Source of the DNA: Novosphingobium meiothermophilum
GTDB lineage: Bacteria; Pseudomonadota; Alphaproteobacteria; Sphingomonadales; Sphingomonadaceae
DNA length: 64,000 nucleotides
Reading direction: 5' to 3'
Assembly (NCBI RefSeq): GCF_003171715.1
Contig: NZ_QGHL01000012.1
Span: 62,001 to 126,000 of the forward strand
The position numbers and the translations under genes are program-made. Below, piece by piece: positions 41,642 to 63,643 of the stretch (the first letter of the stretch is position 1; the number at the start of each line of letters is the position of its first letter). The notes under the pieces were generated by a model. The model had not been told where the DNA came from. It made no database searches and was given only the letters and a program-made list of their open reading frames with translations.

Positions 41642-41727
41642 GGACAGGTGGCCGAGTGGTTAAAGGCAGCAGACTGTAAATCTGCCCGCGCAAGCGTACG
41701 CTAGTTCGAATCTAGCCCTGTCCACCA
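41642..41727 (+). tRNA. tRNA-Tyr (GTA)
   Basis: A class II tRNA with acceptor GGACAGG/CCTGTCC, anticodon GTA in the ACTGTAAAT loop, a long variable arm (CCGCGCAAGCGTACG region), T loop TTCGAAT and an encoded CCA (41725-41727). A P4-type integrase begins 197 bp downstream in the same orientation, so its 3' end is the likely attachment site of the island. Confidence 0.95.
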
Positions 41728-41840: not shown

Positions 41841-41920
41841 GTGTGGGAGGGATGTGGGAGTAAGTTGGCTTACTCCCACACTGCACCCCTCCCAAGGTGG
41901 GCTTGAAAGTGTGGGAGGAA
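41841..41920 (+). promoter_or_regulatory. Structured leader of the integrase gene with repeats of the ribosome site
   Basis: GTGTGGGAGG occurs at 41841-41850 and again at 41909-41918, where it forms the integrase Shine-Dalgarno. Between them a perfect 12-bp stem, TGTGGGAGTAAG (41853-41864) and CTTACTCCCACA (41869-41880), has a 4-nt loop, and CCCCTCCCA follows near 41886. The CTCCCACA arm can pair with any of the three TGTGGGAG copies including the ribosome site. This layout fits a translational switch, or arm sites for the recombinase. Confidence 0.5.
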
Positions 41921-41923
41921 GAA

Positions 41924-43135
41924 ATGGGCAAGCTCACGGCGGTAGCGGTCAAGGCAGCGATGGCGAATCCTGGCACCTATCAGGATGGCGATGGATTGGT
42001 GCTCAGGGTCGATAAGCGTGGTGGAGCCTATTGGGTCCTAAGGCTCCAGCGAGACGGCAAGCGACAGGATATCGGCTTGGGTAGCGCCAAGCAGATGACA
42101 CTCGCAGAAGCGCGGCAAAAAGCCACGGTCTTGCGTAAGGCGGTTAAGGTCGACCACCGCGATGTTCTGGCCGAGAAAAAAGACGAGGCCGCTGCCAAGG
42201 TGACGTTCCGCGCTGCCGCGACTCAGTACCACAGCGAAAACGAGGCGGGCTGGAAAAGCACGGTCTATGCGCGCCAGTGGCTCGCCAGTCTCGAAAACTA
42301 TGCCTTTCCGAAGCTGGGTGACATGCCGACGGGTAGCATCAGCAGTGCTGATATCATCGCTGTGCTGACCCCGATCTGGCAGGAAATCCCCGATACCGCC
42401 CGCCAGGTCCGCAACCGGATTTGCGCCGTGCTGGATTATTCCCACGCGAAGGGCTGGCGCTCCCGCGAGGCTCCATCGGGCAATGGCAGTCTGAAGGCGG
42501 GTCGCGGTCTGCCACGGCAAGTGAAGGTACGTGAGAATCGCAAAGCGATGCCCTATGTCGCGCTGCCCGGATTCCTCACCGCCTTACGGCGTAAGCCATC
42601 CTTCGGGCGGCTTGCGCTGGAGTTGCTCATCCTGACTGGAGTGCGCAGTCAGGAGGTCCGCCTGGCGACATGGTCTGAATTTGACCTGGAGAGCCGGTTG
42701 TGGACCATCCCCGCCGAGCACATGAAGCGAAACAAGGCGCATATCGTGCCGCTGTCTGACGAGGCTCTGGCCGTGCTTGCAAAAGCCGATGCCCTGCGGA
42801 TGTCTGAGAGCGATGTCGTGTTCCCCGGCGTGGCTGGTAAGCCTATGTCTGACATGACGCTGCTCAAGGTGCTGCGGGACATGAGCGAACCATACCACGT
42901 CCACGGCTTCCGCTCTGCGTTCACCGATTGGGCAGCAAATGAGGGCATCCCCGATGCCGTGGTAGAAGCTGCTCTCGCGCACAAGACGCCCGACGCTGTC
43001 CAGGCTGCCTATCGCCGCACAACCTATCTCGGCACACCCGACCAGCCGGGCGCCCGCGTGAAGTTGATGGCAGCTTGGGGGCGTTACTGCCTAGGGGTGG
43101 CGACGGGCGCGGACAGGGCAGCCCCGCCGGCTTGA
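41924..43135 (+). CDS. Tyrosine recombinase/integrase, P4 type
   Basis: About 403 residues: N-terminal DUF4102-like arm-binding domain (YQDGDGLVLRVDKRGGAYWV), a core-binding domain, and a catalytic domain with Arg in LTGVRSQEVRLATW, HGFRSAFTDWA (HxxR), the later His in ALAHKTPDAVQ, and the Tyr nucleophile in YRRTTYLG. ATG 41924 has a strong GGGAGGA 5 bp upstream. It mediates integration and excision at tRNA-Tyr. Confidence 0.95.
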   Translation: MGKLTAVAVKAAMANPGTYQDGDGLVLRVDKRGGAYWVLRLQRDGKRQDIGLGSAKQMTLAEARQKATVLRKAVKVDHRDVLAEKKDEAAAKVTFRAAATQYHSENEAGWKSTVYARQWLASLENYAFPKLGDMPTGSISSADIIAVLTPIWQEIPDTARQVRNRICAVLDYSHAKGWRSREAPSGNGSLKAGRGLPRQVKVRENRKAMPYVALPGFLTALRRKPSFGRLALELLILTGVRSQEVRLATWSEFDLESRLWTIPAEHMKRNKAHIVPLSDEALAVLAKADALRMSESDVVFPGVAGKPMSDMTLLKVLRDMSEPYHVHGFRSAFTDWAANEGIPDAVVEAALAHKTPDAVQAAYRRTTYLGTPDQPGARVKLMAAWGRYCLGVATGADRAAPPA

Positions 43136-44009: not shown

Positions 44010-44906
44010 ATGCCCCCGTTAGACAAAGTTCATCAACTCGAACGCCGCGCCCGCACGATCGTCGAAAGCCTTCAGGGTAGATGGAGTCGCGGCAAAGGCA
44101 TGTGCTGCTGCCCCGCACACGACGACCGTACCCCCTCGCTGAGTGTGACACTGGGTCGGAAAGCGATCCTGTTTCATTGCTTTGCGGGATGCTCGAATGA
44201 GGAGGTCATTGCGGCACTAGACCGCCAGGGTGTTCGCAGCTGTGACCTGTTCGATAGCTCTGGCGCCGTGGCCGCTGATCGACCGGAAAAAAGGGCCTTC
44301 AATTCCAACGCGCGGCGTTTGTGGCATTCGGCGACGGCGATCTCGGGCAGCTCTGCCGAAGGATACCTCGCGCAGCGCGGGATTCTGCGTGCCTCTGATC
44401 AGCTCCGTTATCTCGAGCGTACGCCGCTCGGACCACGCGGTGCAGTACAGTACCTCCCTGCAATGTTGGCGGCCGTCACGACTGACATCGGCATAATCGC
44501 GATACACAGGACATTTCTCGACGCGCCGAGCGCAAGGCTCGCCGCTTTCGATCGGCCGAAGCGTGCATTGGGAAGCCTCGGCTGTGGTGCAGTCAGACTT
44601 GCCCCGCCGGCCGCAGGCCGGTTGGGCCTTGCCGAAGGTATCGAAAGCGCCCTGTCAGCCATGCAGTTGTCCGGGATTCCTTGCTGGGCAACGCTCGGGA
44701 ACGAGCGGTTCGGCCTCGTCGCGATCCCGGAGAGTGTGCGCGAGCTCCACTTGTTCATCGACAATGATCCGGGAGGCGAACTCGCGGATCAGCGCGCGCG
44801 GAAGGCTTATTCTGCATCGGGCCGGGTGATCCGCTCGCGAGCGCCAGCATTGACCGGTTTCGACTGGAACGATGAACTCAAGGCGAGGCTCGCTCGGAAA
44901 ACCTGA
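44010..44906 (+). CDS. CHC2 zinc-finger/Toprim domain protein (primase-like)
   Basis: A 298-residue protein. The zinc finger uses Cys34 and His37 (CCCPAHDDRTPSLSV) with Cys57 and Cys61 (FHCFAGC). The Toprim domain has the acidic Glu in LAEGIESALSAM and the DxD in LFIDNDPGG. It is a common neighbour of the strawberry-notch gene on alphaproteobacterial integrative elements and probably functions in replication or transfer DNA processing. The polymerase core of DnaG is not recognisable. Confidence 0.88.
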   Translation: MPPLDKVHQLERRARTIVESLQGRWSRGKGMCCCPAHDDRTPSLSVTLGRKAILFHCFAGCSNEEVIAALDRQGVRSCDLFDSSGAVAADRPEKRAFNSNARRLWHSATAISGSSAEGYLAQRGILRASDQLRYLERTPLGPRGAVQYLPAMLAAVTTDIGIIAIHRTFLDAPSARLAAFDRPKRALGSLGCGAVRLAPPAAGRLGLAEGIESALSAMQLSGIPCWATLGNERFGLVAIPESVRELHLFIDNDPGGELADQRARKAYSASGRVIRSRAPALTGFDWNDELKARLARKT

Positions 44907-44915
44907 TCAGCGAGC

Positions 44916-44945
44916 CAGAGGGGAGGGGGCCTTCGGCTGATTGAG
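44916..44945 (+). promoter_or_regulatory. Purine-rich leader motif, copy A (before the methyltransferase-helicase gene)
   Basis: CAGAGGGGAGGGGGC at 44916-44930 followed by CTTCGGCTGATTGAG. The 15-mer recurs exactly at 60461-60475 before the ParB-like gene, with CTGATTGAG after it too. A small GCC/GGC hairpin is possible directly after the G-run. The distance to the start codon is 66 bp. Confidence 0.5.
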
Positions 44946-44981
44946 GCCTGCGAGACGCAGGACCTCGTCAGGAGGTTTCCC

Positions 44982-47900
44982 ATGTCCAACTCTCCCCTCG
45001 CCTTCGCATTCGATCCACCATCTCCGCCGCTTGTCGTGACGGCAGCCAACGCAATGGCGTTGCAATTGGCAGCAGGCAGCGCGCTTTCGCGCAGCGACAT
45101 CAACCGCATCATGACGGACCACTTCGGCGGAACCGATGCACTCGGGGCATGGTCAATCCGTGATGCTCACGCTGCGCTCGAGCTGGCGCAGGTTCAATAC
45201 CTGCAAGCGTTCCATCAGATCCAGCTCTCAACCCCGATCGACGAGGCGGATCAGTTCTTCTGCTGCCTCGATGACCGAATTCCGACCCAAACCAATCGCA
45301 GCGACGAGCAGATCGAATGGCAGCAATTCGCAACGCCGCCGCGCCTCGCCTGGCTCGCTGCCCGAGCTTGCGCGCTGGGTGCCGATGAGCTCGCGCTTGA
45401 ACCTTCGGCCGGTACCGGCATGCTCGCAGTCTGGGCGGCCAAAGCCGGTACGCGCCTTGCCTTGAACGAAATCTCGCCGCTGCGCCGCGACTGCCTGACA
45501 GCTGTGTTCCCGGCTGCCCGCGTGACCGGACATGATGCCGAGTTGATCGACGAATTGCTCGATCCGGCCGTTGTCCCAAGCGCCGTGCTCATGAACCCGC
45601 CCTATTCTCACGGGATCGAGCGGGGCCACAATGGCCGCACCGGCGCGAGGCATCTACGATCGGCCTGGAACCGCCTTGCCCCCGGCGGACGGCTTGTCGC
45701 GATCATGCCTGAATGGTTCGATTGCGCGCGGTTTCTGGCCGGGGCGAAGGGGCCAGTGTCGTTGCGGCTCAATGCCGCGGTCGAACGTGCCTTCTTCAAG
45801 AATGGCACCGGGATCACCACGCGACTGCTGGTTCTCGATAAGGTGGAAGGCGCGAACGAGCCCGTCGCTATTCGCACGAACGCGTTCCGCCAGCTGGTCG
45901 ATCTTGTCGATGCTTTGCCGGCTCGCGCCAGCTTGGAGGCTGTTACTGAGCAATCAAGCCTTCCGGCTCGTGCGCCGTTTCGCCTGGTGGCGGTGCCGCG
46001 TAGGCCGCTGCCGACACCAGCCAGGGTCACGCCTGCAGCATCCGCCATCGGGAGGCTCACCTACCAGTCACTCGAAGTACCTGCACCGCTTGCGCCCCAG
46101 GTCGGGCACTATCTGCCCTATCGTCCCAGCAGGATCGTGATCGACGGTGCGGCCGAGCATCCGACACCACTCGTTGAGTCCGTCGCCATGGGCTCGATCG
46201 CTGCACCGATGCCCGAAGCTGTGCCGCAGCTACCCGAAGGGTTGGTCGCCAAGGGCCTGCTGTCTGCTGCCCAGGCAGAGACGCTCATCTACGCTTCAAG
46301 CGCCCATGCGCGCGATCTTCCCGGGCGGTTCGAGCCGGAGGATAAAGGCTGCTCGTTCAAGGCATCGGCGGAGGGCCAGGTCTATCGCCAGGGCTATTTT
46401 CTTGGCGATGGCACAGGCGCCGGCAAGGGCCGTCAGGTTGCGAGCGTCATTCTCGATCGCTGGGTGCGCGGTGAACGCTGCCATATCTGGATTTCGAAGA
46501 ACGAGGCGCTGCTAGAAGATGCCCGGCGTGACTGGGCTGCGCTTGGTGGTCTGCCGATCGACATCCAGCCTCTGGCTTCCTGGAAACTCGGCAGCCCCAT
46601 CGCCATGCGAGAGGGCATTCTCTTCGTGACCTACCCGACCCTGCGTTCGGGCCGAAACGATGCAACCCGCCTCGATCAGATCCTGGCATGGGCGGGCGAC
46701 GACTTCGACGGTGTCATCGTGTTCGACGAGGCGCACGCCATGGCCAATGCCGCTGGCGGGGAAGGATCGCGCGGCAAGGTCAAGGGATCGGAGCAGGGTA
46801 TCGCTGGAGTGCGCCTGCAAAACCTCCTGCCCCGCGCACGGGTGCTATATGCCTCGGCAACAGGCGCGTCCGACGTCAACAATTTGGCATATGCGACGCG
46901 CCTTGGGCTGTGGGGGCCGGAAACCGCCTTCGCCAATCGCGAGGCCTTCGTCGCCGACATTCGTGACGGCGGAATCGCAGCGATGGAGCTGGTCGCACGG
47001 GACCTCAAGTCGCTCGGTCTCTACACCGCGCGCGCATTGTCCTTCGCCGGCGTCGAATACGAGATCCTCGAGCATAGCCTGACCGAGGATCAGATCGCGG
47101 TCTATGATGCCTATGCTGAGGCCTGGGCGATCATCCATGCCAACCTGAGCGACGCGCTGGAGGCCACGCGGATCGTCGACAGCGAAACCGGCGGGACGCT
47201 CAACTCCGGTGCCAAGTCCGCAGCGCTCTCGATCTTCGAGGGAACCAAGCAGCGCTTCTTCGCGCAGCTGCTTCTGTCGATGAAGCTGCCCAGCCTGTTA
47301 CCAGCTATCGACGCTGCGATTGCTGACGGGCACGCGGTAGTCGTCCAGTTGGTCTCAACGGCAGAAGCCATGCTCAACCGCCGGCTTGCCGAACTTTCGG
47401 ACGAGGAACGCGAAGCGCCGGAGATCGACCTGTCCCCGCGGGAATATGTGATCGACTACCTCGGCAAGAGCTTTCCTGTCCGGCTGATGGCCGTCTTCAC
47501 CGATGAAAACGGCAATCCTCGCTCAGAGCCGATGAGCGACGAGCAAGGCGCGCCGGTGCTGTGCCGATCAGCACTCGCTGCGCGCGACCGGATGATCGAG
47601 CAGCTCTGCGCCTTACCGCCGATTGCCACCGCGCTCGATGCCATCATCGAACGCTTCGGCGTCGATCAGGTGGCGGAAGTCACTGGTCGCACGCGCCGGC
47701 TTATTCTCGGGCATGAGGGTCGTCAGAAACTTCAATCGCGCTCGCCGCGAGCCAATGTGGCCGAAACCCAGGCATTCATGGACGGGGCCAAGCGCATCCT
47801 TGTCTTTTCCGACGCCGGGGGAACCGGACGCAGCTACCATGCCGATCTCGCTGCGAAGAACCAGGCCCGCCGCGTCCATTTTCTGCTCGAGCCAGGATGG

Positions 47901-49223
47901 CGGGCTGATGCGGCAATCCAAGGGCTTGGCCGCACCAATCGAACCAATCAGGCTTCGGCCCCGCTGTTCAGACCGGTAACGACCGATGTGCGCGGCGAGC
48001 GCCGCTTCATCTCGACGATCGCACGGCGCCTCGACAGCCTCGGTGCCTTGACGCGTGGGCAGCGCCAGACCGGCGGGCAAAACCTGTTCGATCCGGCTGA
48101 CAACCTCGAGAGCATCTATGCCAAGGGGGCGCTCCATCGCTGGTTCGGCCTCTTGTTCACCGGCAAGCTCGAAGCGGTCAGCCTCGGGCGCTTCCAGGAG
48201 CTGACAGGCCTGCGGATCGAGGCGCCTGACGGGTCGATGGTCGATGATCTGCCGTCGATCCAGCGCTGGCTCAACCGCATCCTGGCGCTTCCCATAGCCT
48301 TGCAGAACGCGATCTTCGATGAGTTCATGGGGCTGGTCGAAGCGCGTATCGATGCCGCCCGGCAGGCTGGCACGCTCGATCTCGGCCTCGAGACGATTGC
48401 AGTCGAGGAGTTCACGGTCCTATCGGACACGCTGCTACGCACCGATCCGGCATCGGGCGCGACGACCCATCTCCTCGAACTGGAGATCGCCAGGGCCCTG
48501 AAGCCGCTCACGCTGACGCGGCTCGAGGAGACTCACGGCATCACGGGGCAACGGCAGCGACCGGTTCGGAACGCCCGTTCAGGTCGGGTCGCCCTGCTGG
48601 TCCCCGCGCGTAGCATTCTTGCCGATGACGGCACGCGCGTGGTCCGCTTCGAATTGCTGCGTCCGCTGGGGCGCAGTCATATCACCGAAGATCAATTGGC
48701 TGAGAGCAGCTGGGAGGACATTGCCATCGGCGCATTCCGCGAGGCGTGGGCCGCCGAGGTGGAAGAGGCGAGGACCAGCCACAAGCGCGAGCGCCTCTAT
48801 CTTGCGACGGGCCTCCTGCTGCCGGTCTGGGACAAGCTGCCTTCGGATTTCGTGAGGGTGAACCGCATCTCGGCTGCGGATGGCCGGTCGCTCCTTGGCC
48901 GGGAGGTTCCCGTCCACTGCGTGCCCGAACTGTGCCGAGCGCTGGGTCTGGAACGCGAGCAAACTCTTTCCGCCGACGACGTTGTAAAGACCGTCTTGGC
49001 AACGGGCAGGGCCATCGAGTTCGCGGGCCGCGAGCTGCTCATGGTCAAGCGCAGCTTGGTCAATGGCTCACAGCGAATTGAGCTTACGGGATGGAGTGCT
49101 GCTCGGCTCGACTGGTACAAGGCCCAAGGCTGCTTTACCGAGATCGTCCGCTATCAGACCCGGCTGTTCGTGCCGATCGAGGGCGCGGCGAGCGTGATTG
49201 CCAGACTGGCATCATCGGTATAG
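44982..49223 (+). CDS. N6-methyltransferase-strawberry notch helicase fusion protein
   Basis: A 1413-residue protein. The N-terminal methyltransferase region has a SAM motif LEPSAGTGMLAVWAAKAG near residue 139 and NPPYSHG at about 206. The central helicase has GDGTGAGKGRQ near 475, DEAH near 582 and SATGASD, with the strawberry-notch Helicase_C_4-like region later (GGTGRSYHADL, IQGLGRTNRTNQ). Such fusions are hallmarks of large mobile elements; they may modify and remodel DNA during transfer or counter restriction. AGGAGG precedes ATG 44982. The activity of this protein is unknown. Confidence 0.9.
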   Translation: MSNSPLAFAFDPPSPPLVVTAANAMALQLAAGSALSRSDINRIMTDHFGGTDALGAWSIRDAHAALELAQVQYLQAFHQIQLSTPIDEADQFFCCLDDRIPTQTNRSDEQIEWQQFATPPRLAWLAARACALGADELALEPSAGTGMLAVWAAKAGTRLALNEISPLRRDCLTAVFPAARVTGHDAELIDELLDPAVVPSAVLMNPPYSHGIERGHNGRTGARHLRSAWNRLAPGGRLVAIMPEWFDCARFLAGAKGPVSLRLNAAVERAFFKNGTGITTRLLVLDKVEGANEPVAIRTNAFRQLVDLVDALPARASLEAVTEQSSLPARAPFRLVAVPRRPLPTPARVTPAASAIGRLTYQSLEVPAPLAPQVGHYLPYRPSRIVIDGAAEHPTPLVESVAMGSIAAPMPEAVPQLPEGLVAKGLLSAAQAETLIYASSAHARDLPGRFEPEDKGCSFKASAEGQVYRQGYFLGDGTGAGKGRQVASVILDRWVRGERCHIWISKNEALLEDARRDWAALGGLPIDIQPLASWKLGSPIAMREGILFVTYPTLRSGRNDATRLDQILAWAGDDFDGVIVFDEAHAMANAAGGEGSRGKVKGSEQGIAGVRLQNLLPRARVLYASATGASDVNNLAYATRLGLWGPETAFANREAFVADIRDGGIAAMELVARDLKSLGLYTARALSFAGVEYEILEHSLTEDQIAVYDAYAEAWAIIHANLSDALEATRIVDSETGGTLNSGAKSAALSIFEGTKQRFFAQLLLSMKLPSLLPAIDAAIADGHAVVVQLVSTAEAMLNRRLAELSDEEREAPEIDLSPREYVIDYLGKSFPVRLMAVFTDENGNPRSEPMSDEQGAPVLCRSALAARDRMIEQLCALPPIATALDAIIERFGVDQVAEVTGRTRRLILGHEGRQKLQSRSPRANVAETQAFMDGAKRILVFSDAGGTGRSYHADLAAKNQARRVHFLLEPGWRADAAIQGLGRTNRTNQASAPLFRPVTTDVRGERRFISTIARRLDSLGALTRGQRQTGGQNLFDPADNLESIYAKGALHRWFGLLFTGKLEAVSLGRFQELTGLRIEAPDGSMVDDLPSIQRWLNRILALPIALQNAIFDEFMGLVEARIDAARQAGTLDLGLETIAVEEFTVLSDTLLRTDPASGATTHLLELEIARALKPLTLTRLEETHGITGQRQRPVRNARSGRVALLVPARSILADDGTRVVRFELLRPLGRSHITEDQLAESSWEDIAIGAFREAWAAEVEEARTSHKRERLYLATGLLLPVWDKLPSDFVRVNRISAADGRSLLGREVPVHCVPELCRALGLEREQTLSADDVVKTVLATGRAIEFAGRELLMVKRSLVNGSQRIELTGWSAARLDWYKAQGCFTEIVRYQTRLFVPIEGAASVIARLASSV

Positions 49224-49230
49224 CTCCTTG

Positions 49231-49267: not shown

Positions 49268-49276
49268 AGAACTGCC

Positions 49277-50421: not shown

Positions 50422-50485
50422 CCGAACCAGCTGGGTTTCCAGACAGGTGCTGTAGGATCTCCGAGCGCAGTTGACGGCCGCTGGC

Positions 50486-50998: not shown

Positions 50999-51347
50999 CA
51001 CGGCGCAGGATAGGGTTTGGCTTCCAGCGCGTCCACTGAAGCTGCCGACCTTGCTGCCGAAATGGCAAGAACCGCCGACATAGCCGCCGTTCACCAGCTG
51101 GGGATCACTGCTGAAACCCGCCCTTCATTCAGTACCGAGGATTGACTGCTCTCAGGCCTCGCCCGTGGCCCGCTTAGCGGCCAAATTATCGTGGAAAGCG
51201 GACGCTAAGGCGGCGACATTCCTTCGAACTCCCAGCGATTTCAAGCAGCAAGCTTCGTAGCGACTGAAAACTAATCAGGCCCTTCCATCAGCTCGGTCGC
51301 GCCTGGCGACGTTGAGCGTAGTCGGCGGTGGCGGGGAAAAAGCCATA

Positions 51348-52691: not shown

Positions 52692-52953
52692 CCCTGCCCG
52701 GCAACACAGCCGTCGTTCGAGGCGGCAAATGGCACCCCTAAAAGCTGCCCTACTTTCACAGGCAGCGTTGGCGACCCCGATCAACCGGCATGGGACGGTT
52801 ACGACGGTTGGCTTTCAGGAGAGAGATAACACAGCTGCCGGTCAGTAATATCCACGCGTAACCCACAGAAACCTCTCAGATTTTGATGAAGTTCCGGCTT
52901 GACGTCAGCAATCAACGTGGAACATGCTGCGAATATTCGGGGGTGAGGCTTAG

Positions 52954-54873
52954 ATGTGGTCAGATAACGAGACTATCCGTGACTTGGTCAACTTCTCTCA
53001 TGTTGCAGATATCGCTGCCGAACGGATAGTCGGCGCAATGGGCGAGCCGCTATCGGTCGGCATTTCAGGTGACTGGGGCGTTGGCAAATCGTCGATGATG
53101 AAGCTGTTGCGTACCTCGCTCGGCAAGCACACGGACGTCGAGTTCCGCTTCGTGGAATTCAACGCCTGGCTCTATCAGAATTACGATGACGCCCGTGCCG
53201 CCCTGATGGAGGCAATCGCCGCTGCCGTGGTCGAACAGGCCGTTGCGAAGAAGGACTCGCTTTCGGAAACGGCGCTGAAGCACGCCCGTAGTCTGTTCGG
53301 TCGCGTGAAGAAGCTCAGACTGCTGGGTCTCATCGGCTCTACGGCGATTGACATCTACTCAGGCGGTCATCTTACGCCATTCCTCGCGGCGGGGATGGGG
53401 ACGGTAACCGGCTTGCTCGACGGTGAAGTTACTGGCGAAGACCTAAAGAAGGCCGAGAAACTCGCTACGGACACCTACGAGGGCGGGAAAAAGCTGGTCG
53501 GCGACAAGAAGCCGGACGCGGCGCCCGAACCGGAAGAGGCTGATAGTCCGCGCAAAGCCATCCAGGCCTTTCGTGATGATTTGGAAGCGACGCTGACCGA
53601 ACTTGGCGTAACCCTCGTGGTGCTAATTGACGATCTGGACCGCTGTCTGCCCAAGACCGCAATCGCGACGCTCGAATCGATGCGTTTGTTTCTCTTCCTG
53701 AAGCACACCGCCTTCGTCATTGCCGCTGACGAGGGCATGATCCGGCAGGCCGTGCGCTCGCATTTCGAGAACGCGACGCTCGATGACGATCTCGTCACCA
53801 ACTATTTCGACAAGCTAATCCAGCTGCCCATCCGCGTGCCCGCGCTCGGCACCCAGGAAGTGCGGGCATATCTGATGATGCTGTTCGTAGATGCCGAGCC
53901 GGATCTCGACGGTACGGTGAAGGACAGTGTCCGCGAGGCCGTCTGCAAGCGCCTGGCTCAATCTTGGACCGGAGCTCGGGTCGATAAGGCATTCGTATCG
54001 GACGCGATCAAGAACTGCCCACCGAACGCCGAATGCCCATCGGGCTTGCTGAACCGCCTCGCGCTTGCTGAGCGGATCGCTCCTATTCTGACGACATCGC
54101 CCAAGATTCGTGGCAATCCCCGCCTCATCAAGCGCTTCCTCAACACCCTATCAATGCGCACCTCCATGGCGCGAATCCAGTCAGTAACTGTGGACGAGGA
54201 AGTGCTGGTCAAGCTTCTGCTGTTCGAACGCTGCGGCGACAAGGATGCCTATGCCGAACTGCTTCGCGCGGTGAACGAATCCGAGGACGGCTACGCTGCA
54301 TTTCTTGGGGACATGGAGCGGCGCGCTCGCGGCGATGACACCGCGCCAGAGCTGGAAAAGCCATGGAACGAAGCGTTCCATATGAACTGGCTCACGCTGG
54401 ACCCCCCGCTTGCTGATAAGGATCTGCGCGGCGCGCTCTACGTCGGTCGAGAAAGCCATCCAATCATTTCCCGTGCGGACGAATTGTCGTCCGAGGCGAT
54501 GGAGGTGCTCGACATGCTCCTGAAGCTGAATTCGGCGAGTCCGATTGTCAGCGACGAGATCGCGAAATTGTCGAATCCGGAAATCGGCCGAATCACCGAC
54601 AAGATCATCGTGAGGGCAAGGAACGAGGTATCTTGGGGGACACCCCCGATCCTCAACGCCTTGCAGGCGCTCGCTGCCGCTTCAACGACTTCTGCCCGTG
54701 CAGTCGTCGCCTTCTTCAGTGAGGTGCCGTCCAGTCAGATCAAGGCATCCATCGTACCGCGTCTCGCAGCGCTTGTCTGGGGGCAAGAGGTGCTCACCGC
54801 TTTCCACAAGCGAGGTGACTTGGCCGTTCCGGCAAAGAATGCCGTCACGAAATCAATGAAGGGGGAGAAATGA
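52954..54873 (+). CDS. qatA: QatA: KAP family P-loop ATPase of the Qat antiphage system
   Basis: A 639-residue KAP NTPase: Walker A GDWGVGKS at residues 39-46, Walker B LVVLIDDLDRCLP near 226, and the KAP insert between them with possible membrane-associated segments (LLGLIGSTAIDIYSGGH, LTPFLAAGMGTVTGLL). A later helical region follows (NPRLIKRFLNTLS). With the three following genes it reproduces the described QatABCD gene order. GGGGGTGAGG precedes ATG 52954. Its stop overlaps qatB by 4 bp. Confidence 0.92.
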   Translation: MWSDNETIRDLVNFSHVADIAAERIVGAMGEPLSVGISGDWGVGKSSMMKLLRTSLGKHTDVEFRFVEFNAWLYQNYDDARAALMEAIAAAVVEQAVAKKDSLSETALKHARSLFGRVKKLRLLGLIGSTAIDIYSGGHLTPFLAAGMGTVTGLLDGEVTGEDLKKAEKLATDTYEGGKKLVGDKKPDAAPEPEEADSPRKAIQAFRDDLEATLTELGVTLVVLIDDLDRCLPKTAIATLESMRLFLFLKHTAFVIAADEGMIRQAVRSHFENATLDDDLVTNYFDKLIQLPIRVPALGTQEVRAYLMMLFVDAEPDLDGTVKDSVREAVCKRLAQSWTGARVDKAFVSDAIKNCPPNAECPSGLLNRLALAERIAPILTTSPKIRGNPRLIKRFLNTLSMRTSMARIQSVTVDEEVLVKLLLFERCGDKDAYAELLRAVNESEDGYAAFLGDMERRARGDDTAPELEKPWNEAFHMNWLTLDPPLADKDLRGALYVGRESHPIISRADELSSEAMEVLDMLLKLNSASPIVSDEIAKLSNPEIGRITDKIIVRARNEVSWGTPPILNALQALAAASTTSARAVVAFFSEVPSSQIKASIVPRLAALVWGQEVLTAFHKRGDLAVPAKNAVTKSMKGEK

Positions 54874-55775
54874 TGGGCACGTCCGCCTCTAGCCGCGGCC
54901 CGGGATCTGGCCCCGACATTCCGATTGTACCCCCGTGGGTCGACAGTCCGCCACAGCAGCCCGCGCCCCAACCTCCGCAGCCAATACCCACACCGGGGCA
55001 AACGCCGACGTCCCCCTCTCCGCAGGCGCCTCAGTCGCCAAATCCTCAGGTTCTCCCGCCACCAAACCCCCAGCCGCAGCCTCAGCCCGAACCCTCGCCA
55101 CCTGGCCGGTGGCGCGGGGTAAGGACGTCGCTCGGCAAATTCGGAGGCGGGGGCGACGACCGCGGCAGGCACTTGCGCCGTGGACTCGGCCACTATTCGC
55201 GGAGCGGCATGGGAGGCAGCGGCAATGCTGCGCGCCGGATGGGTGGTTCGGCCAGAACAGCCAGCGTCCTGCACAGCGCTCTGACCGCGCTGGCGAATGG
55301 AGAACCTCTTCCTCAGGAACTGGGGATTGACCCGCAGGCCCTGGTCGGGCTGTCACCATCAGAGTTTGCTGACGCTCTCGTGGATGCTATCCGCCCGATC
55401 GACGGAACGCAAGACGCCGAGGCAACACGTGATTCGGTGGCGCGAGCGCTATCCGACATGCTGGACCAGAATGCCGATATCACCAGCTTGACGCCGCAAC
55501 AGGTCGATCAGGTCACAGCCTCGACCCTTGGATATGACGTCGCCCTGCGCATCGAGCTGGATGTCGGAAAAGCGATCATCGCCAAGGCCCCCACGAAGGG
55601 TGACGGATTGGAGCGGCTCCAGGAAATGAAGGACTATGTGCGCGAGATCGTAGCTGCTGAATACGCAGAGGAGCGCTCCAGCGTTGGGACCGTCGGTCGC
55701 GCAGCTATTGAGCGGATTTCGCGCAACGCGATTCAACAGGCATTCGAAGTGTTTGAGGAGGATGGCGAGCTGTGA
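54870..55775 (+). CDS. qatB: QatB: uncharacterised Qat component with Pro-rich N-terminus
   Basis: A 301-residue protein. Residues about 10-80 are a Pro/Gln-rich low-complexity region, then a Gly/Arg-rich stretch (GGGGDDRGRHLRRGLGHYSR), then a predicted helical domain (LTALANGEPLPQELGIDPQA, then LSPSEFADALVDAIRP). Identity as QatB rests on position between the KAP ATPase and the QueC-like gene and on the general description of QatB as an uncharacterised protein. Both ends overlap neighbours by 4 bp. Confidence 0.85.
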   Translation: MMGTSASSRGPGSGPDIPIVPPWVDSPPQQPAPQPPQPIPTPGQTPTSPSPQAPQSPNPQVLPPPNPQPQPQPEPSPPGRWRGVRTSLGKFGGGGDDRGRHLRRGLGHYSRSGMGGSGNAARRMGGSARTASVLHSALTALANGEPLPQELGIDPQALVGLSPSEFADALVDAIRPIDGTQDAEATRDSVARALSDMLDQNADITSLTPQQVDQVTASTLGYDVALRIELDVGKAIIAKAPTKGDGLERLQEMKDYVREIVAAEYAEERSSVGTVGRAAIERISRNAIQQAFEVFEEDGEL

Positions 55776-57052
55776 TCAGAGTCGCATGCCTTCCCGAGAA
55801 TCTCCCGGACCAAGCCGGGACTGATCTGCGGTTCGACATTTATTCCCGATCGCGTCTCGCAGGACGCGGGCGGGTCGGCAACTTGGTTCCCGGCCGTGTC
55901 CGTCGGTTTGGCCTCCGGCCATCGGTCGATGCCTGGGATTTCACGTCGTTCGCGATGGCCGTGGTTGCTGCCGACGAGGCGGTATCACGCGAGCGTAGCC
56001 CAGATGGATGGACACGTGAGATCGGGCTGACGGTTGCCGTCTCCTTGCCAGATTTCTGGAACTCGCAGCGCGCCCGCCTGACCCAGGCGCTCCGCTTCCT
56101 GTCTGGAGACATCTGGGAACTGGATTTCATCGGAGACGGTGCTGCTCCCACGACCAGCGATCCCTCGCGACTGCGCAACGAGGACATGGTCTGTTTGCTA
56201 TCAGGCGGCATGGACAGCCTAATCGGAGCAATCGACGTCGTTGGTGAAGGGCGCAGTCCGCTTTTCGTAAGCCAGATGGCCAAAGGCGACACTGCGGACC
56301 AAAAGATGTTCGCTCACGCCATCGCGCCCCATAGCCTGCATCTTCAACTCAACCATCATGCCCGTCCACCCGGGCCATCAGAACGATCTCAGCGTGCTCG
56401 CTCGATCGCCTTCCTCGGCTTCGGAGTGTTGGCAGCGACCTGCCTGCGGCGGCATCATGATGGCTATGAGGTGGAACTCCGCATCCCTGAAAACGGCTTT
56501 ATCAGCCAGAACGTGCCGCTGACCCCGCTGCGCACCGGAAGCCTCAGTACGCGCACGACGCACCCATATTTCCTGCGCCTCATTCAAGAGACCCTCGACG
56601 CGGCCGGCTTGCGGGTCCGCTTGAATAACCCCTATGAGCACAGCACGAAGGGCGAGATGCTCTCGGGTTGTACGGACCAAGCCCTTCTGGCTCAGCTGGT
56701 CGCCGATTCGACCAGCTGCGGGCGTTATTCTAGAACAGGCTTCCAGCATTGTGGTCGCTGTGTGCCCTGCCAAGTGCGGCGTGGCGCCTATCTCGCGTGG
56801 GGGCAGAACGACGAAACCACCGACGGCTACAAATACGGACCATTGGGCCAAGATGACGTGCGGCATGCCCGGTTCGATGACGTTCGGTCTGTCGCCATGG
56901 CCGTTGAAACAGTGCGCCGATATGGCATCGACGAGCTGATTGGCGGTGCGATGAATGCGCGTATGCTCGGCGACGTTACCCCCTATCGTGAGGTCGTCCG
57001 GCGTGGCATCGCGGAATTGGCCGCGCTCCATGCTCATCTCGGTGTCACTTGA
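55772..57052 (+). CDS. qatC: QatC: QueC-like PP-loop ATPase of the Qat system
   Basis: A 426-residue protein related to 7-cyano-7-deazaguanine synthase QueC. The PP-loop SGGMDS is at about 144-149 and zinc-type cysteines HCGRCVPC at 327-333, with another Cys in the region before. The N-terminal 130 residues are an added domain absent from QueC. In Qat, it may modify a nucleotide or nucleobase; its substrate is not established. Overlaps with both neighbours by 4 bp. Confidence 0.92.
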   Translation: MIRVACLPENLPDQAGTDLRFDIYSRSRLAGRGRVGNLVPGRVRRFGLRPSVDAWDFTSFAMAVVAADEAVSRERSPDGWTREIGLTVAVSLPDFWNSQRARLTQALRFLSGDIWELDFIGDGAAPTTSDPSRLRNEDMVCLLSGGMDSLIGAIDVVGEGRSPLFVSQMAKGDTADQKMFAHAIAPHSLHLQLNHHARPPGPSERSQRARSIAFLGFGVLAATCLRRHHDGYEVELRIPENGFISQNVPLTPLRTGSLSTRTTHPYFLRLIQETLDAAGLRVRLNNPYEHSTKGEMLSGCTDQALLAQLVADSTSCGRYSRTGFQHCGRCVPCQVRRGAYLAWGQNDETTDGYKYGPLGQDDVRHARFDDVRSVAMAVETVRRYGIDELIGGAMNARMLGDVTPYREVVRRGIAELAALHAHLGVT

Positions 57053-57819
57053 TCGACTTCCACTGCCATATTGATCTGTATCCCGACCCTCTGGCCGTCC
57101 TTGACGAAGTCGATGCAAGAGGGACCTATGTATTGGCGGTCACGACGACGCCGAAGGCTTGGCGTGGGACAAAAAAGCTGGTCGGAGATCGCCAGCGGGT
57201 TCGCGTTGCTCTTGGTCTGCATCCCGAGCTGGTCGCACAGCGCTATCAGGAAGTTCCCCTGCTATGCGGCCTACTCCCAGAAGCTCCATATGTCGGGGAA
57301 ATCGGGATCGACGGAAGCCCGCCGCACCGGGGTTCGCTCGATCTACAGAAATCTGTCTTCGATCGCATACTTGCCGAATGTGCGACGCACGGCGGGCGGG
57401 TCATGACGATCCATTCTCGCGGAGCTGCAACTGCAGTGCTGGATGCACTTGAGCGCCAGCCCGATGCCGGGGTGCCTATCCTTCATTGGTTCAGCGGCAC
57501 AATGAGAGAGTTGGAACGGGCAGTTCAACTCGGTTGCTGGTTCTCCATAGGACCTGCGATGCTCCGCTCCCGGAAGGGCCGCGAGTTGGCGGCAGCCATG
57601 CCGCTGGATCGGCTGTTGACGGAAACGGATGCACCTTTCGCACGAGATGGCGAAAACCCTTTGATGCCGTGGCAGGCTTACGATTGCTTGGGTGAACTGG
57701 AAACGATCAGTAACCTAGGCATGGGGGCACTCGCCTTGCAGATTAAAAGAAATTTGAAGCGACTTGGACAATACAAACAGTCACCCCGCTTAACGAAATC
57801 GGCGCCGCTGAGCGGTTGA
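57049..57819 (+). CDS. qatD: QatD: TatD-family metal-dependent nuclease of the Qat system
   Basis: A 256-residue TatD/PHP-like amidohydrolase-fold protein. Metal ligands: HCH at residues 5-7 (FHCHIDLYPDP), Glu in VGEIGIDGSP, His in TIHSRGAA, His in LHWFSGT, and Asp in LLTETDAPF. The start is TTG, overlapping the qatC stop (TTGA, 57049-57052). TatD relatives are DNases. It completes the operon. Confidence 0.92.
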   Translation: MIDFHCHIDLYPDPLAVLDEVDARGTYVLAVTTTPKAWRGTKKLVGDRQRVRVALGLHPELVAQRYQEVPLLCGLLPEAPYVGEIGIDGSPPHRGSLDLQKSVFDRILAECATHGGRVMTIHSRGAATAVLDALERQPDAGVPILHWFSGTMRELERAVQLGCWFSIGPAMLRSRKGRELAAAMPLDRLLTETDAPFARDGENPLMPWQAYDCLGELETISNLGMGALALQIKRNLKRLGQYKQSPRLTKSAPLSG

Positions 57820-57964
57820 CGGCGGCCATGCGCCATTGCCGTTCGTTTCCCGCCATTCTCGCTCGTCTGAAACCGAACACCATCATGGCCGTCTTTCGAG
57901 TCGGGCTCTTGGGCTTAGTCGGCTAACGGGTCCAGTGCGGCGAAGAATGGAAAGGGCGGATCGA

Positions 57965-58426: not shown

Positions 58427-58531
58427 TTTCGCATTCCTTCGCGAATGCTAGTAACCAAGTAATCCTTGGCAATTTCTGCGCATGCGCAATTTTGTGCGGA
58501 GTGGCGCCATAAGTCATCGTAGGGGGCGACC

Positions 58532-60490: not shown

Positions 60491-60543
60491 CCAAATGGGC
60501 GTCGATGGTCGATGCACCTGGCTCACAGTCAGGAGTGTGTCCC

Positions 60544-62532
60544 ATGATCAAGTCGATCCCGCTGAACAAGCTCGTCCAGTCTCCCCGCAATGTCCGCCGT
60601 CACAGTGACCCCGCTGCCGATGCCGAGCTCAAGGCCAGCATCGCAGCCCATGGGCTGCTGCAGAACCTGATCGTCTGGCCGGCCGCGAAGGGTAAGTTCG
60701 AGGTCGAAGCCGGCGAACGCCGCCGCCGCGCGATGCTGGCGCTCGCTTACGACAAGATCCTCGCCCGCGATCACGAAGTCACGTGCCTCGTGCTCGAGGA
60801 CAGCGCCGAAGTCGCGGTCGAGACCAGCCTCGCAGAAAACTTTCATCGCCTCGCCATGAACCCAGCCGATGAGGCCCAGGCCTTTGCCGCGCTCGTGGCA
60901 GGCGGTGCGACTGTTGAGGATGTTGCGCACCGCTTCGGCCTGACCGTCCGCTTCGTCGAGGGCCGGCTGCGTCTCGCGACGCTTGCGCCGGTCGTGTTCG
61001 AGGCTCTTGCCTCAGGCCAGATCACTCTCGACATCGCCAAAGCCTTTGGCGCGACCTCGGACCAGGAGATCCAGACCCGCGTATTTGAGCAGGTTTCATC
61101 GGCCTACTATGCGCCCAATCCCGACAGCATTCGGCGAATGGTCCTATCCGGGACCGTCCGGGGCAGCGATCCCCGTGCCCGCCTTGTCGGCCGCGACTCC
61201 TACATTGCCGCCGGCGGCCGAATCGAGCGCGAACTGTTCGACGACGATAACAGCGAATCCTGGGTCGATGTCGCCTTGCTCGAGAGCCTCGCGGCGGCGA
61301 AGATGGAAGAACAGGCGAAGGTGCTCGCAGCCGAACAGGGTCTCGCCTGGGTCAAGCCCACGCTCGATCCCTATGCCAGCCATGATCTGGTCGAAGGGCT
61401 GGTCCGGCTTCCTGCCGAACCGGCGCCGCTGACCGAAGCGGAATTGGCGAGGCTCGACGAACTCGATGCTTCCTATGACGAGCATGCGGCGATCCTCGAA
61501 GACGAGGACAGCGCCGCGGAGGCTGTGGCTGCGGCCGAAGCGGCCATCGAAGCGATCGAACACGAATGCCAGGAAATCCGCGCCCGCCCGCCAGTCATAG
61601 CGGCTGACCTCAAGGCCGAGGCGGGGATGATCCTGGTCCTCTCGCGCGATGGCACGCCGGTTCTCCAACCCGTGTTCTACGGCGAGCGAAAGACTGAACC
61701 TGCCGAAGCCGATAGCGGGATCGAAGTCGTTCCGACGGAAGATGGGTCGGACAAGCGCCGGACCACCTTGTCCAAGCGCCTGGTGGACGAGCTGGCCATG
61801 CAGCGCCGTGATGTCCTGGCACTGCATGTTGCCTCTGACCCCGGGCTTGCGCTCGACATTATGGTCTTCAGTCTGGCGGATGCCGACACGCACGACTGGC
61901 GGACGCGGGCTGCCACCACGCTGCGCGCGCCTGTTCCGGCAGGGCCGATCATCGGCTTCGAAGCCAAGGATGCTCCGGCGAGCAGCGCGCTTGCCGAGCT
62001 CAGGTCCAGTCTCGACGAAAGCTGGCGTGCGGGCACCGATGCGACTGCCCGCTTCGACCTGTTTCGCGCGCTGTCCGATGACAGCCGCGCCGCATGGCTT
62101 GGCTATGTCGTCGCCCGGTCGCTCGAGGCGAGCCTCAACATGACGGGCGAGCGTCAGTTGCCGTTCCAGGATTACCTTGGCAGCCTGATCGGCATCGACA
62201 TGGCGCAATGGTGGAGACCGACTGCGGCCAACTACTTTGACCGGGTGCCGAAGCAGGTGATCCTCGACGCGCTGACCGATGTTGGCGGTCTCGAGCTTTC
62301 CTCGCGCTTTGCCTCGGTCAAGAAGGGTGATCTCGCGATGAGCGCCGAGCGTGTCTTCGCCGGCACCTACATCACCGAAGTCGAAGTACGCGAGAAGGCT
62401 CTGGCCTGGGTGCCTGAGGTCATGCGCTTCACTTCCGCTGCGCCAGAGGCTGGCGAGCCGGAGATTGACGCCACTGACGCCGAGCCAGGTTTCGACAACG
62501 AACATCAGCCCCCCCGCGAGCTGGCCGCCTGA
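60544..62532 (+). CDS. Large ParB/RepB/Spo0J family protein of the mobile element
   Basis: About 662 residues. The N-terminal ParB domain shows IPLNKLVQSPRNVRRHSDPA, HGLLQNLIVWPA, the CTP/DNA-box segment EAGERRRRAMLAL and LAENFHRLAMNPADE, followed by an HTH (TVEDVAHRFGLTVRFVEGRL). The remaining ~440 residues are an extension specific to element-borne ParB-like proteins (C-terminal coil EAVAAAEAAIEAIEHECQE). No ParA is next to it. CAGGAG precedes ATG 60544. It may function in element regulation or stability rather than classical partition. Confidence 0.9.
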   Translation: MIKSIPLNKLVQSPRNVRRHSDPAADAELKASIAAHGLLQNLIVWPAAKGKFEVEAGERRRRAMLALAYDKILARDHEVTCLVLEDSAEVAVETSLAENFHRLAMNPADEAQAFAALVAGGATVEDVAHRFGLTVRFVEGRLRLATLAPVVFEALASGQITLDIAKAFGATSDQEIQTRVFEQVSSAYYAPNPDSIRRMVLSGTVRGSDPRARLVGRDSYIAAGGRIERELFDDDNSESWVDVALLESLAAAKMEEQAKVLAAEQGLAWVKPTLDPYASHDLVEGLVRLPAEPAPLTEAELARLDELDASYDEHAAILEDEDSAAEAVAAAEAAIEAIEHECQEIRARPPVIAADLKAEAGMILVLSRDGTPVLQPVFYGERKTEPAEADSGIEVVPTEDGSDKRRTTLSKRLVDELAMQRRDVLALHVASDPGLALDIMVFSLADADTHDWRTRAATTLRAPVPAGPIIGFEAKDAPASSALAELRSSLDESWRAGTDATARFDLFRALSDDSRAAWLGYVVARSLEASLNMTGERQLPFQDYLGSLIGIDMAQWWRPTAANYFDRVPKQVILDALTDVGGLELSSRFASVKKGDLAMSAERVFAGTYITEVEVREKALAWVPEVMRFTSAAPEAGEPEIDATDAEPGFDNEHQPPRELAA

Positions 62533-62570
62533 CCTCCTCCTGACAGGCAAGGCTACTCGTGACCCAAGAG

Positions 62571-62611
62571 AAGCGGTCCTTCGGCTCACGCCGGAGGGCC
62601 GCTTCCTTTTT
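62571..62611 (+). terminator. Rho-independent terminator after the ParB-like gene
   Basis: A 15-bp stem (AAGCGGTCCTTCGGC at 62571-62585; GCCGGAGGGCCGCTT at 62590-62604, two G-T pairs), 4-nt loop TCAC and CCTTTTT (62605-62611). Confidence 0.85.
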
Positions 62612-62620
62612 GGAAGAAGA

Positions 62621-62645
62621 GCAGAGGGGGCTCGGGACCCTGTGG
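62621..62645 (+). promoter_or_regulatory. Shortened purine-rich leader motif, copy C (before ardC)
   Basis: GCAGAGGGGGCTCGGGACCCTG begins at 62621; it matches copies A and B if their AGGGG insert is removed, and has a possible GGG/CCC hairpin. Distance to the ardC start is about 80 bp, similar to the others. Weaker than A and B. Confidence 0.35.
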
Positions 62646-62701
62646 CACTGACCGGCGAACCCGTCGCCGATTGTCCAGATGCCGCAATCAGGAGAACCAT
62701 C

Positions 62702-63643
62702 ATGGCCTATCGCAAGGAGCAGGGCGGCGGCCTGTCGCCCGCCACCCGTATCACCCAGGAAATCATCGCCCGTCTGGAAGCGGGCACGAAGCCGTGGATC
62801 AAGCCGTGGCGCGGTGTCCCGGTCTCCCGGCCCTTGCGGGCCTGCGGGATCCCGTACCGCGGCATGAATGTCTTCTGGCTCTGGATGGTCGCCGACATCT
62901 GCGGCTACGCCTCGCCATTCTGGATGACCTACAACCAGGCAAAATCGCTCGGAGCCCAGGTCCGCAAGGGCGAGAAGTCGACCATCGCGATCTTCTACAA
63001 GAGCTACACCAAGGAGGTTGAAACGCCTGATACCGGCGAAAAAGCCGATGAAGCCCGCAGGGTGCTGAAGGCCTATCCAGTCTTCAACGCCGATCAGGTC
63101 GACGGTCTGCCCGAGCGCTTCCATCCGGCTGCAACGCTTGAGCTCGTCGAGCCTGAAGGACGCGAGGCCGAGCTCGACGCCTTCTTCGCCGCCATCCCCG
63201 TCAACCTGCGCCACCAGGGCTGCGAGGCTTACTACGAACCGACTGCGGATCGTGTCACGATGCCGCCGACGAGCCTGTTTTCCGGCTTCGACCACTATTA
63301 TGCCACGCTCGCCCACGAGCTGTCGCACTGGACCGGCCATGCAAGCCGGTTGGGACGTGATCTCAAGAACCGCTTCGGCACGGCGGCCTATGCCGCCGAA
63401 GAACTGGTCGCCGAACTATCTAGCGCCATGCTCGGCGCCGAGCTGGGTCTGCCGGTCACGCATCTCGACAATCACGCCAGCTATATCGAGCACTGGCTCA
63501 AGCTGCTGAAGGACGATGACCGCGCCATCCTAACCGCTGCAGCCAAGGCCGAAGAAGCCGCGAGCCTGCTGCTCAAGCTCGGCGGGAGGGTCACCCCTGG
63601 CCAGTTTGACGACGCGTCAGACGACGCGGCGCTCGCGGCCTGA
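62702..63643 (+). CDS. ardC: ArdC-type antirestriction protein, ssDNA-binding/zincin domains
   Basis: A 313-residue protein with the N-terminal ArdC ssDNA-binding domain (ITQEIIARLEAGTKPWIKPW, then YRGMNVFWLW and PFWMTYNQAKSLGAQVRKGE) and a C-terminal zincin-like metallopeptidase domain with HELSHWTGH (HExxH) and a downstream Glu in EELVAELSSAML. ArdC proteins protect incoming plasmid DNA from restriction. CAGGAGAACC precedes ATG 62702. Confidence 0.94.
   Translation: MAYRKEQGGGLSPATRITQEIIARLEAGTKPWIKPWRGVPVSRPLRACGIPYRGMNVFWLWMVADICGYASPFWMTYNQAKSLGAQVRKGEKSTIAIFYKSYTKEVETPDTGEKADEARRVLKAYPVFNADQVDGLPERFHPAATLELVEPEGREAELDAFFAAIPVNLRHQGCEAYYEPTADRVTMPPTSLFSGFDHYYATLAHELSHWTGHASRLGRDLKNRFGTAAYAAEELVAELSSAMLGAELGLPVTHLDNHASYIEHWLKLLKDDDRAILTAAAKAEEAASLLLKLGGRVTPGQFDDASDDAALAA

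What the first reader, a model, noticed from the sequence alone, without database searches (positions are those of the whole stretch)
52954..57819. Complete QatABCD antiphage operon on a tRNA-Tyr island
Four genes with 4-bp overlaps throughout: KAP ATPase, Pro-rich unknown, QueC-like PP-loop protein with an added N-terminal domain, and a TatD-family nuclease. This is the described Qat defence order. All key motifs (Walker A/B, SGGMDS, CxxCxxC, TatD metal ligands) are intact, so it is probably functional. It is a sphingomonad example, located between the backbone blocks of a mobile element.
Basis: partly seen in the sequence, partly recalled or inferred. Interest (0 to 1): 0.8.

Follow-up and report, generated by a model that had tools for sequence, protein, structure and literature searches.

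The report
Complete Qat antiphage operon in sphingomonad
A bacterium carries, on a mobile DNA island, a complete copy of a known four-gene system that protects bacteria from viruses; it is an ordinary member of that system, but its relatives give a hint about which molecule the system's key enzyme uses.

Summary
The finding is right in substance: window 52954-57819 (+) is a complete qatABCD operon. All four proteins hit Qat profiles, QatB and QatC match chains of solved QatBC structures, and the order A-B-C-D recurs in relatives. One detail is wrong: qatA and qatB overlap by 1 bp, not 4. The likely qatB start is ATG 54873, giving the MGTS N-terminus that the published model needs; 17 of 17 aligned QatB proteins can begin MGTS. 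The QatC ATP loop, Thr-x-Thr pocket and four zinc cysteines are kept. Island: tRNA-Tyr and integrase are there; no second att copy was found up to the contig end.

Published work (PMC13279940) leaves the QatC substrate open. Two of 14 genomes with a complete Qat operon lack detectable QueE and QueC, which argues weakly against host-made CDG as the donor. Two other QatC-like families also sit beside small proteins with conserved N-termini (MGH.., M[ST]DGP), so Qat may be one of several QueC-fold systems that act on partner N-termini. The locus itself is a new member of a known kind.

The parts
52954..54873 (+). qatA, KAP-family P-loop ATPase, 639 aa (Walker A aa 39-46, Walker B aa 222-230)
   Evidence: PADLOC QatA 7.9e-138; Pfam KAP_NTPase 7.1e-54; NCBIfam QatA 392 bits, below its 600-bit cut-off; motifs
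54873..55775 (+). qatB, 300 aa, likely start at the second ATG; N-terminus MGTS, Pro-rich tail with PPW (aa 20-22), then the QatB core
   Evidence: PADLOC QatB 3.2e-35; NCBIfam QatB 140.8 bits over cut-off 100; PDB 9vll_A and 9zee_A; start by comparison with relatives
54870..54875 (+). qatA stop / qatB start: ATG at 54870 (4-bp overlap, would give Met-Met-Gly) and ATG at 54873 (1-bp overlap TGATG, gives Met-Gly-Thr-Ser)
   Evidence: sequence; in the 17 aligned loci the MGTS Met is ATG, and in 14 of 17 it overlaps the qatA stop by 1 bp
55772..57052 (+). qatC, QueC-like PP-loop protein, 426 aa, GTG start: SGGMDS aa 144-149, TRTTHP aa 260-265, zinc cysteines in STSC and CGRCVPC
   Evidence: PADLOC QatC 1.5e-98; NCBIfam QatC 331 over 280; PDB QatC 9vlk 4.9e-55, 9zee 1.6e-52; motifs
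57049..57819 (+). qatD, TatD-family metal-dependent nuclease, 256 aa, TTG start
   Evidence: PADLOC QatD 1.1e-89; NCBIfam QatD 324.6 over 230; Pfam TatD_DNase 1.2e-43
41642..41727 (+). tRNA-Tyr (GTA), presumed attachment site of the island
   Evidence: ARAGORN
41897..43135 (+). tyrosine recombinase (presumed island integrase)
   Evidence: Pfam Phage_integrase, Phage_int_M, Arm-DNA-bind_3
44010..49223 (+). element backbone, left: Toprim/DUF7146 gene (44010-44906) and strawberry-notch helicase (44982-49223)
   Evidence: Pfam
60505..63643 (+). element backbone, right: ParB-like gene and ArdC-like antirestriction gene
   Evidence: Pfam

Best explanation
This is a complete, probably working qatABCD antiphage operon carried as cargo of an integrative element. 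Inferred working, after the published P. aeruginosa system: QatB is translated from ATG 54873, its initiator Met is removed and Gly2 is exposed. QatB docks on QatC, and its Pro-rich tail reaches the QatC active site. QatC activates a carboxylate donor with ATP through its SGGxDS loop and joins it to Gly2 of QatB. Modified QatB-QatC blocks phage growth, and QatA (DNA-binding ATPase) and QatD (TatD nuclease) widen the range of phages stopped. Shown here: gene content, order, likely starts, conservation of catalytic and substrate-pocket residues. Taken from PMC13279940: the QatBC complex, the need for Gly2, for the ATP loop and for the two Thr. Not shown in the papers I could read: the chemical group added. 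My reading is that it is probably not CDG made by the host.
For: Profiles and solved relatives. Same gene order in the 17 aligned loci, of which 14 have all four genes at full length; L071 has no detected qatD, the qatA match of L075 begins only at residue 105, and the qatC frame of L077 breaks near its end. MGTS possible in 17 of 17 aligned QatB and seen upstream of qatC in three plasmids from Enterococcus, Deinococcus and Rhodococcus. T-R-T in the substrate pocket in 17 of 17 QatC. Published mutants for Gly2, SGGxDS, the Thr pair and QatA/QatD (PMC13279940). Against CDG: Thr-x-Thr replaces the Tyr-x-Asp that reads CDG, and 2 of 14 genomes with a complete operon (G394, G860) have no QueE match and no QueC over cut-off, while 12 of 14 have a QueE match.
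Against: No experiment on this operon. QatA falls under NCBIfam's QatA cut-off. The MGTS starts were picked by looking for the motif in frame. The QueE argument rests on two genomes of one family (f14), in which absence of QueE looks common: of 18 f14 genomes searched, all picked for carrying Qat or a QatC relative, 17 have no match. The systems might be idle there. Most QueE matches in the other genomes are under curated cut-offs. A related family with a canonical-looking Tyr-x-Asp (M[ST]DGP family) also occurs in two QueE-less genomes (G714, G937), so absence of QueE is not a clean test.
Confidence: 0.8

Rival explanations
1. Same operon, but QatC joins host-made CDG (7-carboxy-7-deazaguanine) to Gly2 of QatB, as Cap9 does to its CD-NTase in type IV CBASS.
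For: QueC fold, and MGTS like the MGGS of CBASS CD-NTases (PMC13279940). PMC13329287 writes of carboxydeazaguanylation as the proposed reaction. The window's own genome has QueC over cut-off (6.5e-58) and a QueE-like protein, under every QueE cut-off; 12 of 14 genomes with a complete operon have a QueE match.
Against: CDG-reading Tyr/Asp replaced by invariant Thr/Thr, no CDG in the crystal, activity not reconstituted in vitro (PMC13279940). Two complete Qat operons in genomes without detectable QueE and QueC.
Confidence: 0.3
2. The operon is silent or degenerate cargo: complete in sequence, not active in this host.
For: No promoter-like site found just upstream of qatA by a sigma-70 scan, which covers only one promoter type. 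Lower G+C than the element backbone (0.605 against 0.64). Broken Qat loci exist in relatives (G428 in pieces; G920 with truncated qatC; G676 with a broken end of qatC).
Against: All four frames open, the motifs looked for are kept. The two nearest named relatives, at 84% and 80% DNA identity, keep the whole operon in frame.
Confidence: 0.12
3. The four genes are housekeeping: a queC, a tatD and unrelated neighbours.
For: QatC hits Pfam QueC weakly and QatD hits Pfam TatD.
Against: The genome has a separate canonical QueC over cut-off at G000:C8:531804-532412. Qat-specific profiles win by a wide margin. Overlapping genes and recurring order.
Confidence: 0.01

Closest known systems
qatABCD with solved QatBC structures (P. 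aeruginosa 9zee/9zef; 9vlk/9vll)
   Same: Gene families and order, MGTS N-terminus, SGGxDS, Thr-x-Thr, four zinc cysteines
   Different: Only distantly related in QatB (phmmer 2.5e-10 and 1.3e-14); QatA below NCBIfam's QatA cut-off; long Pro-rich QatB tail; no phage assay
Qat operons of Sphingomonas sp. 67-36 (L005) and Novosphingobium panipatense (L006)
   Same: DNA 84% and 80% identical over the operon; QatC 93% and 91%
   Different: DNA match covers only 52940-57711 (L005) and 52951-57690 (L006); of the window's twelve other tested genes only a distant integrase, 28%, hits L005 and none hits L006: same cassette, other neighbourhood
Type IV CBASS Cap9 with its CD-NTase
   Same: QueC-fold enzyme acting on a partner with an N-terminal Gly motif (from PMC13279940)
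   Different: Cap9 keeps the CDG-reading Tyr/Asp; Qat has Thr/Thr, a different partner and added QatA and QatD
[quoted passage not shown]
   Same: PP-loop and zinc fold
   Different: QatC has N- and C-terminal additions and lacks the CDG motif; E. coli QatC does not replace QueC in vivo (PMC13329287)

Membership tests
Qat (qatABCD) antiphage system | Four genes in order KAP ATPase, QatB, QueC-like, TatD | tested here: met
   same order in relatives
Qat (qatABCD) antiphage system | QatB profile match | tested here: met
   PADLOC 3.2e-35; NCBIfam 140.8 over 100
Qat (qatABCD) antiphage system | QatC profile match | tested here: met
   PADLOC 1.5e-98; NCBIfam 331 over 280
Qat (qatABCD) antiphage system | QatD profile match | tested here: met
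   PADLOC 1.1e-89; NCBIfam 324.6 over 230
Qat (qatABCD) antiphage system | QatA profile match | tested here: inconclusive
   PADLOC 7.9e-138, but NCBIfam QatA 392 bits under its 600-bit cut-off
Qat (qatABCD) antiphage system | QatB N-terminal MGTS | tested here: met
   met with start ATG 54873; 17 of 17 aligned QatB
Qat (qatABCD) antiphage system | QatC SGGxDS, Thr-x-Thr, four zinc Cys | tested here: met
   alignment to 9zee_B
Qat (qatABCD) antiphage system | QatB-QatC complex and antiphage activity | not testable with these tools
   needs plaque assay and pull-down
Type IV CBASS | CD-NTase, Cap9 and Cap10 in one operon | tested here: not met
   no such hit among the ten window proteins from 49091 to 60052 scanned with PADLOC
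Integrative element at tRNA-Tyr | Integrase beside the tRNA 3' end, with transfer genes | tested here: met
   tRNA, integrase, TrwB-type coupling protein and TrwC relaxase downstream in L002
Integrative element at tRNA-Tyr | Direct repeat of the tRNA 3' end at the far end | tested here: inconclusive
   none in the window or on to the contig end at 154632 of C14; the rest of the genome was not searched

The most novel reading that the evidence does not exclude
QatC joins something other than host-made CDG to Gly2 of QatB, so Qat can work in cells without the queuosine-precursor pathway; and Qat is one of at least three QueC-fold systems (Qat with MGTS partners, a two-gene MGH type, a four-gene M[ST]DGP type) that each act on the freed N-terminus of a small partner protein.
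Probability: 0.35. Interest if true: 0.65.

Novelty: new member of a known kind. Interest (0 to 1): 0.33.

Why it matters
The operon adds a sphingomonad member to a system whose central reaction is unsolved in the papers I could read. The corrected qatB start matters in practice: the longer reading frame would give Met-Met-Gly, from which Gly would not be expected to be freed. Carriage of complete Qat operons by genomes with no detectable QueE and QueC turns the open question of the QatC donor into a simple test in laboratory E. coli. The QatC-like families beside Qat are ready candidates for the same kind of chemistry.

Tried and rejected
Island end: searched for a second copy of the tRNA-Tyr 3' end in the window and on to the contig end; none. 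The rest of the genome was not searched because the genome searches went to the QueE question.

QueD (PF01242) as a test of CDG synthesis: dropped. It finds nothing even in the window's own genome, which has QueC and a QueE-like protein.

Shared ancestry of QatB with the partners of the two QatC-like families: not supported. Profile comparison gives probability 4.5% and 0.2%.

Rows dropped before counts: G920, because its qatC is truncated and no qatA or qatB was found upstream; G428, because qatA, qatB and qatC are in pieces; L007, cut by its contig; L004 and L078, one locus and nearly the window's own sequence, left out of the QatB alignment (it also has MGTS) though its genome G200 is in the QueE count. 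Three genomes with an aligned locus are left out of the count of complete operons: G594 (no qatD found), G331 (qatA match begins at residue 105) and G676 (qatC frame breaks near its end); all three have QueE and QueC matches. In one search further in-frame MGS matches deep inside qatB of L065, L066, L067, L068 and L077 were set aside. L100 showed no MGH start in its partner region; L079 is at a contig edge and its partner cannot be judged; L109 and L113 were left out of the enzyme tree (a stop in L109's frame; no clean frame in my L113 listing).

The draft also counted 17 'intact' Qat genomes; 14 are complete.

Papers: PMC13279940 read in parts 1-3 of 6 plus passages; PMC13329287 section 7 plus passages; PMC7699616 one passage; the rest search listings only. 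Two further QatBC studies cited there (10.1038/s41467-026-73101-4; bioRxiv 10.1101/2025.11.03.686418) were not seen and may already answer the donor question. That Qat in QueE-less genomes, or the MGH and M[ST]DGP operons, are not in print is claimed only for the searches.
Full report
OBSERVATION. PADLOC gives QatA 7.9e-138, QatB 3.2e-35, QatC 1.5e-98, QatD 1.1e-89. NCBIfam puts QatB, QatC and QatD over their curated cut-offs and QatA under its own (392 against 600 bits). Pfam gives KAP_NTPase, QueC (weakly), TatD_DNase, and nothing for QatB. The only PDB sequences matched by QatC at E up to 0.01 are two QatC sequences (9vlk, 9zee). QatB matches 9vll_A, named 'DUF5610 domain-containing protein' and solved together with QatC, and 9zee_A, named QatB.

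THE qatB START. The longest frame begins at ATG 54870 and would give Met-Met-Gly-Thr-Ser with a 4-bp overlap. In 17 of 17 aligned loci, the window included, an ATG opens the frame MGTS, and in 14 of 17 this ATG overlaps the qatA stop by 1 bp, as TGATG or TAATG. I picked these starts by looking for the motif in frame, so the count is not blind; their place at the qatA stop is independent support. Several relatives have longer frames with start codons further upstream inside qatA; an ATG directly before the MGTS codon is seen only in the window and its near-copy L004 (L071 has GTG there). So qatB most likely starts at 54873, and the overlap is 1 bp. Three plasmid Qat loci outside Pseudomonadota (Enterococcus, Deinococcus radiodurans CP1, Rhodococcus) also show MGTS ahead of qatC, the Rhodococcus one with a GTG start. 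In CP1 the listed qatB begins 248 bp downstream of it.

QatC RESIDUES. Read by eye against 9zee_B, whose chain numbers agree with the residue numbers in PMC13279940: S156, D160 and S161 (SGGMDS), R233 and F237 (adenine pocket), T278 and T280 (STRTTHP), C334, C354, C357 and C360 (zinc) are all kept in the window. T-R-T is kept in 17 of 17 QatC; three read STRTAHP.

SURROUNDINGS. tRNA-Tyr ends at 41727 and a tyrosine recombinase frame follows at 41897. A strawberry-notch helicase lies to the left and ParB and ArdC genes to the right; a TrwB-type coupling protein and a TrwC relaxase lie beyond the window in L002. No second tRNA end was found. Qat and its neighbours have G+C 0.59-0.605 against 0.64 for the backbone genes. 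In Sphingomonas sp. 67-36 and Novosphingobium panipatense the DNA match covers 52940-57711 and 52951-57690 only, within flanks of up to 10 kb: the operon travels as a cassette. A MAG placed in another genus (G200/L004) shares 13,025 bp at 98.9%; recent transfer or a binning error cannot be told apart.

FREQUENCY. QatC over cut-off: 6 of 298 genomes of the window's family, 9 of 398 of the phylum draw, 3 of 295 of family f14; the draws overlap. In plasmids 132 of 72,556 records match at tblastn E 1e-5, not all of them Qat. In phages 2 of 50,697 records match, both weakly.

MECHANISM. PMC13279940 reports that QatB and QatC form a 1:1 complex, that QatBC alone stops lambda-vir, that Gly2 of QatB, the QatC ATP loop and the two Thr are needed, and that the reaction is unresolved. 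The window keeps the features listed above, so it most likely works the same way.

DOES QatC NEED CDG? I asked whether genomes with Qat can make CDG. Seventeen genomes with an aligned locus, or with L004, were looked at: G000, G200, G160, G273, G114, G048, G513, G594, G394, G447, G444, G331, G421, G676, G678 (L005), G679 (L006), G860. Fourteen have all four genes at full length; G594, G331 and G676 do not. QueE (TIGR03365, E up to 1e-3): 15 of 17, or 12 of the 14 complete. None of the 15 is over TIGR03365's cut-off; 7 are over that of TIGR04508. The two without, G394 and G860, are also negative with TIGR04508 and have no canonical QueC over cut-off. QueC over cut-off: 14 of 17, or 11 of the 14 complete; G200 has QueE but no QueC over cut-off. 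G394 and G860 keep Tgt, so they may salvage later queuosine precursors; by the pathway given in PMC13329287 CDG lies upstream of preQ0. The two Qat loci are in different genera and far apart in the QatC tree, so two acquisitions are likely. Limits: two genomes only; one family in which 17 of 18 searched genomes, all chosen for carrying Qat or a QatC relative, lack a QueE match; QueE was sought by two profiles only; and the M[ST]DGP relatives, which keep a Tyr-x-Asp, also occur in two QueE-less genomes (G714, G937). I rate 'donor is not host-made CDG' at about 0.6.

QatC-LIKE FAMILIES BESIDE QAT. The same searches returned two further groups. MGH type, 612-681 aa: SGGxDS in 13 of 13, TR[TS]THP in 13 of 13 (12 with TRTTHP), a C-terminal addition, and upstream a gene for a ~260-aa protein beginning MGH in 13 of 14 loci, one of these with a TTG start. 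M[ST]DGP type, 455-461 aa: S[ED]GxDS in 10 of 10, Y.DYR.HP near where Qat has STRTTHP in 9 of 10, a ~190-aa partner that can begin M[ST]DGP in 11 of 11 loci, a downstream helix-turn-helix gene (peptidase-M78 domain in the one scanned) seen in 10 of 11, and a ~200-230-aa gene after it in 11 of 11. These partner starts too were picked by motif. PADLOC calls the three enzymes scanned QatC and knows none of the four partners scanned. A tree separates the three enzyme groups with support 100/98 or better. The partners show no sequence kinship with QatB. PMC13329287 finds qatA beside only 34.3% of its QatC cluster; such families may be part of the rest (my inference).

VERDICT. An ordinary, complete Qat operon, correctly recognised, with one start codon to correct. 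What goes beyond it, carriage by QueE-less genomes and the two sister families, is suggestive and testable.

Noticed in passing
L080-L084, L088-L090, L094 (plasmid), L112, L113: Operon around a ~460-aa QatC-like enzyme: ~190-aa partner that can begin M[ST]DGP (11 of 11), QatC-like with S[ED]GxDS and Y.DYR.HP, helix-turn-helix regulator (seen in 10 of 11), ~200-230-aa protein. The two partners scanned are unknown to PADLOC and Pfam.
   Followed up: partly
L085, L087, L100-L111 (L079 at contig edge): Two-gene unit: ~260-aa protein beginning MGH (13 of 14) and a 612-681-aa QatC-like enzyme with SGGxDS and, in 12 of 13, TRTTHP. The two partners scanned are unknown to PADLOC and Pfam. No QueE match in 12 of 13 f14 genomes that carry it (G649 has one), nor in G615; G878 has a QueC-like hit under cut-off.
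   Followed up: partly
L002:12674-17788 and L003:11-5396 (downstream of the window, same contig): BREX-like cluster: WYL regulator, BrxC/PglY (DUF6079), part of a PglX, BrxHI helicase, PglZ.
   Followed up: partly
window 49091-50421: RES toxin with Xre/MbcA/ParS-type antitoxin pair at the end of the strawberry-notch helicase gene.
   Followed up: no
window 51312-52691: TIR-domain protein of 459 aa just upstream of qatA; hits candidate defence family PDC-S66 (7e-23) and Thoeris ThsB (1.4e-12); possible separate defence gene.
   Followed up: no
window 50486-51094 (-): DUF6933 protein with a match to candidate defence family PDC-S63, 7.9e-12.
   Followed up: no
window 58532-60052: Gamma-glutamylcyclotransferase/AIG2-like domain in the C-terminal part of a 506-aa protein, between Qat and ParB.
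   Followed up: no
L071 (G594), L075 (G331), L077 (G676): Incomplete Qat loci: no detected qatD in L071; qatA match beginning at residue 105 in L075; qatC frame broken near its end in L077.
   Followed up: partly
L086 (G428) and L099 (G920): Decayed Qat: pieces of qatA, qatB and qatC with a full-length qatD in G428; truncated qatC plus qatD in G920.
   Followed up: no
L082 (G105): The same kind of element backbone (strawberry-notch 71%, ParB 61%, ArdC 71% identical) carries the M[ST]DGP QatC-like operon between ParB and ArdC.
   Followed up: partly
window 57690-57819: DNA similarity to L005 and L006 stops 108 and 129 bases before the qatD stop codon, though protein similarity runs on to residue 247 (L005) or 241 (L006) of 256.
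   Followed up: no
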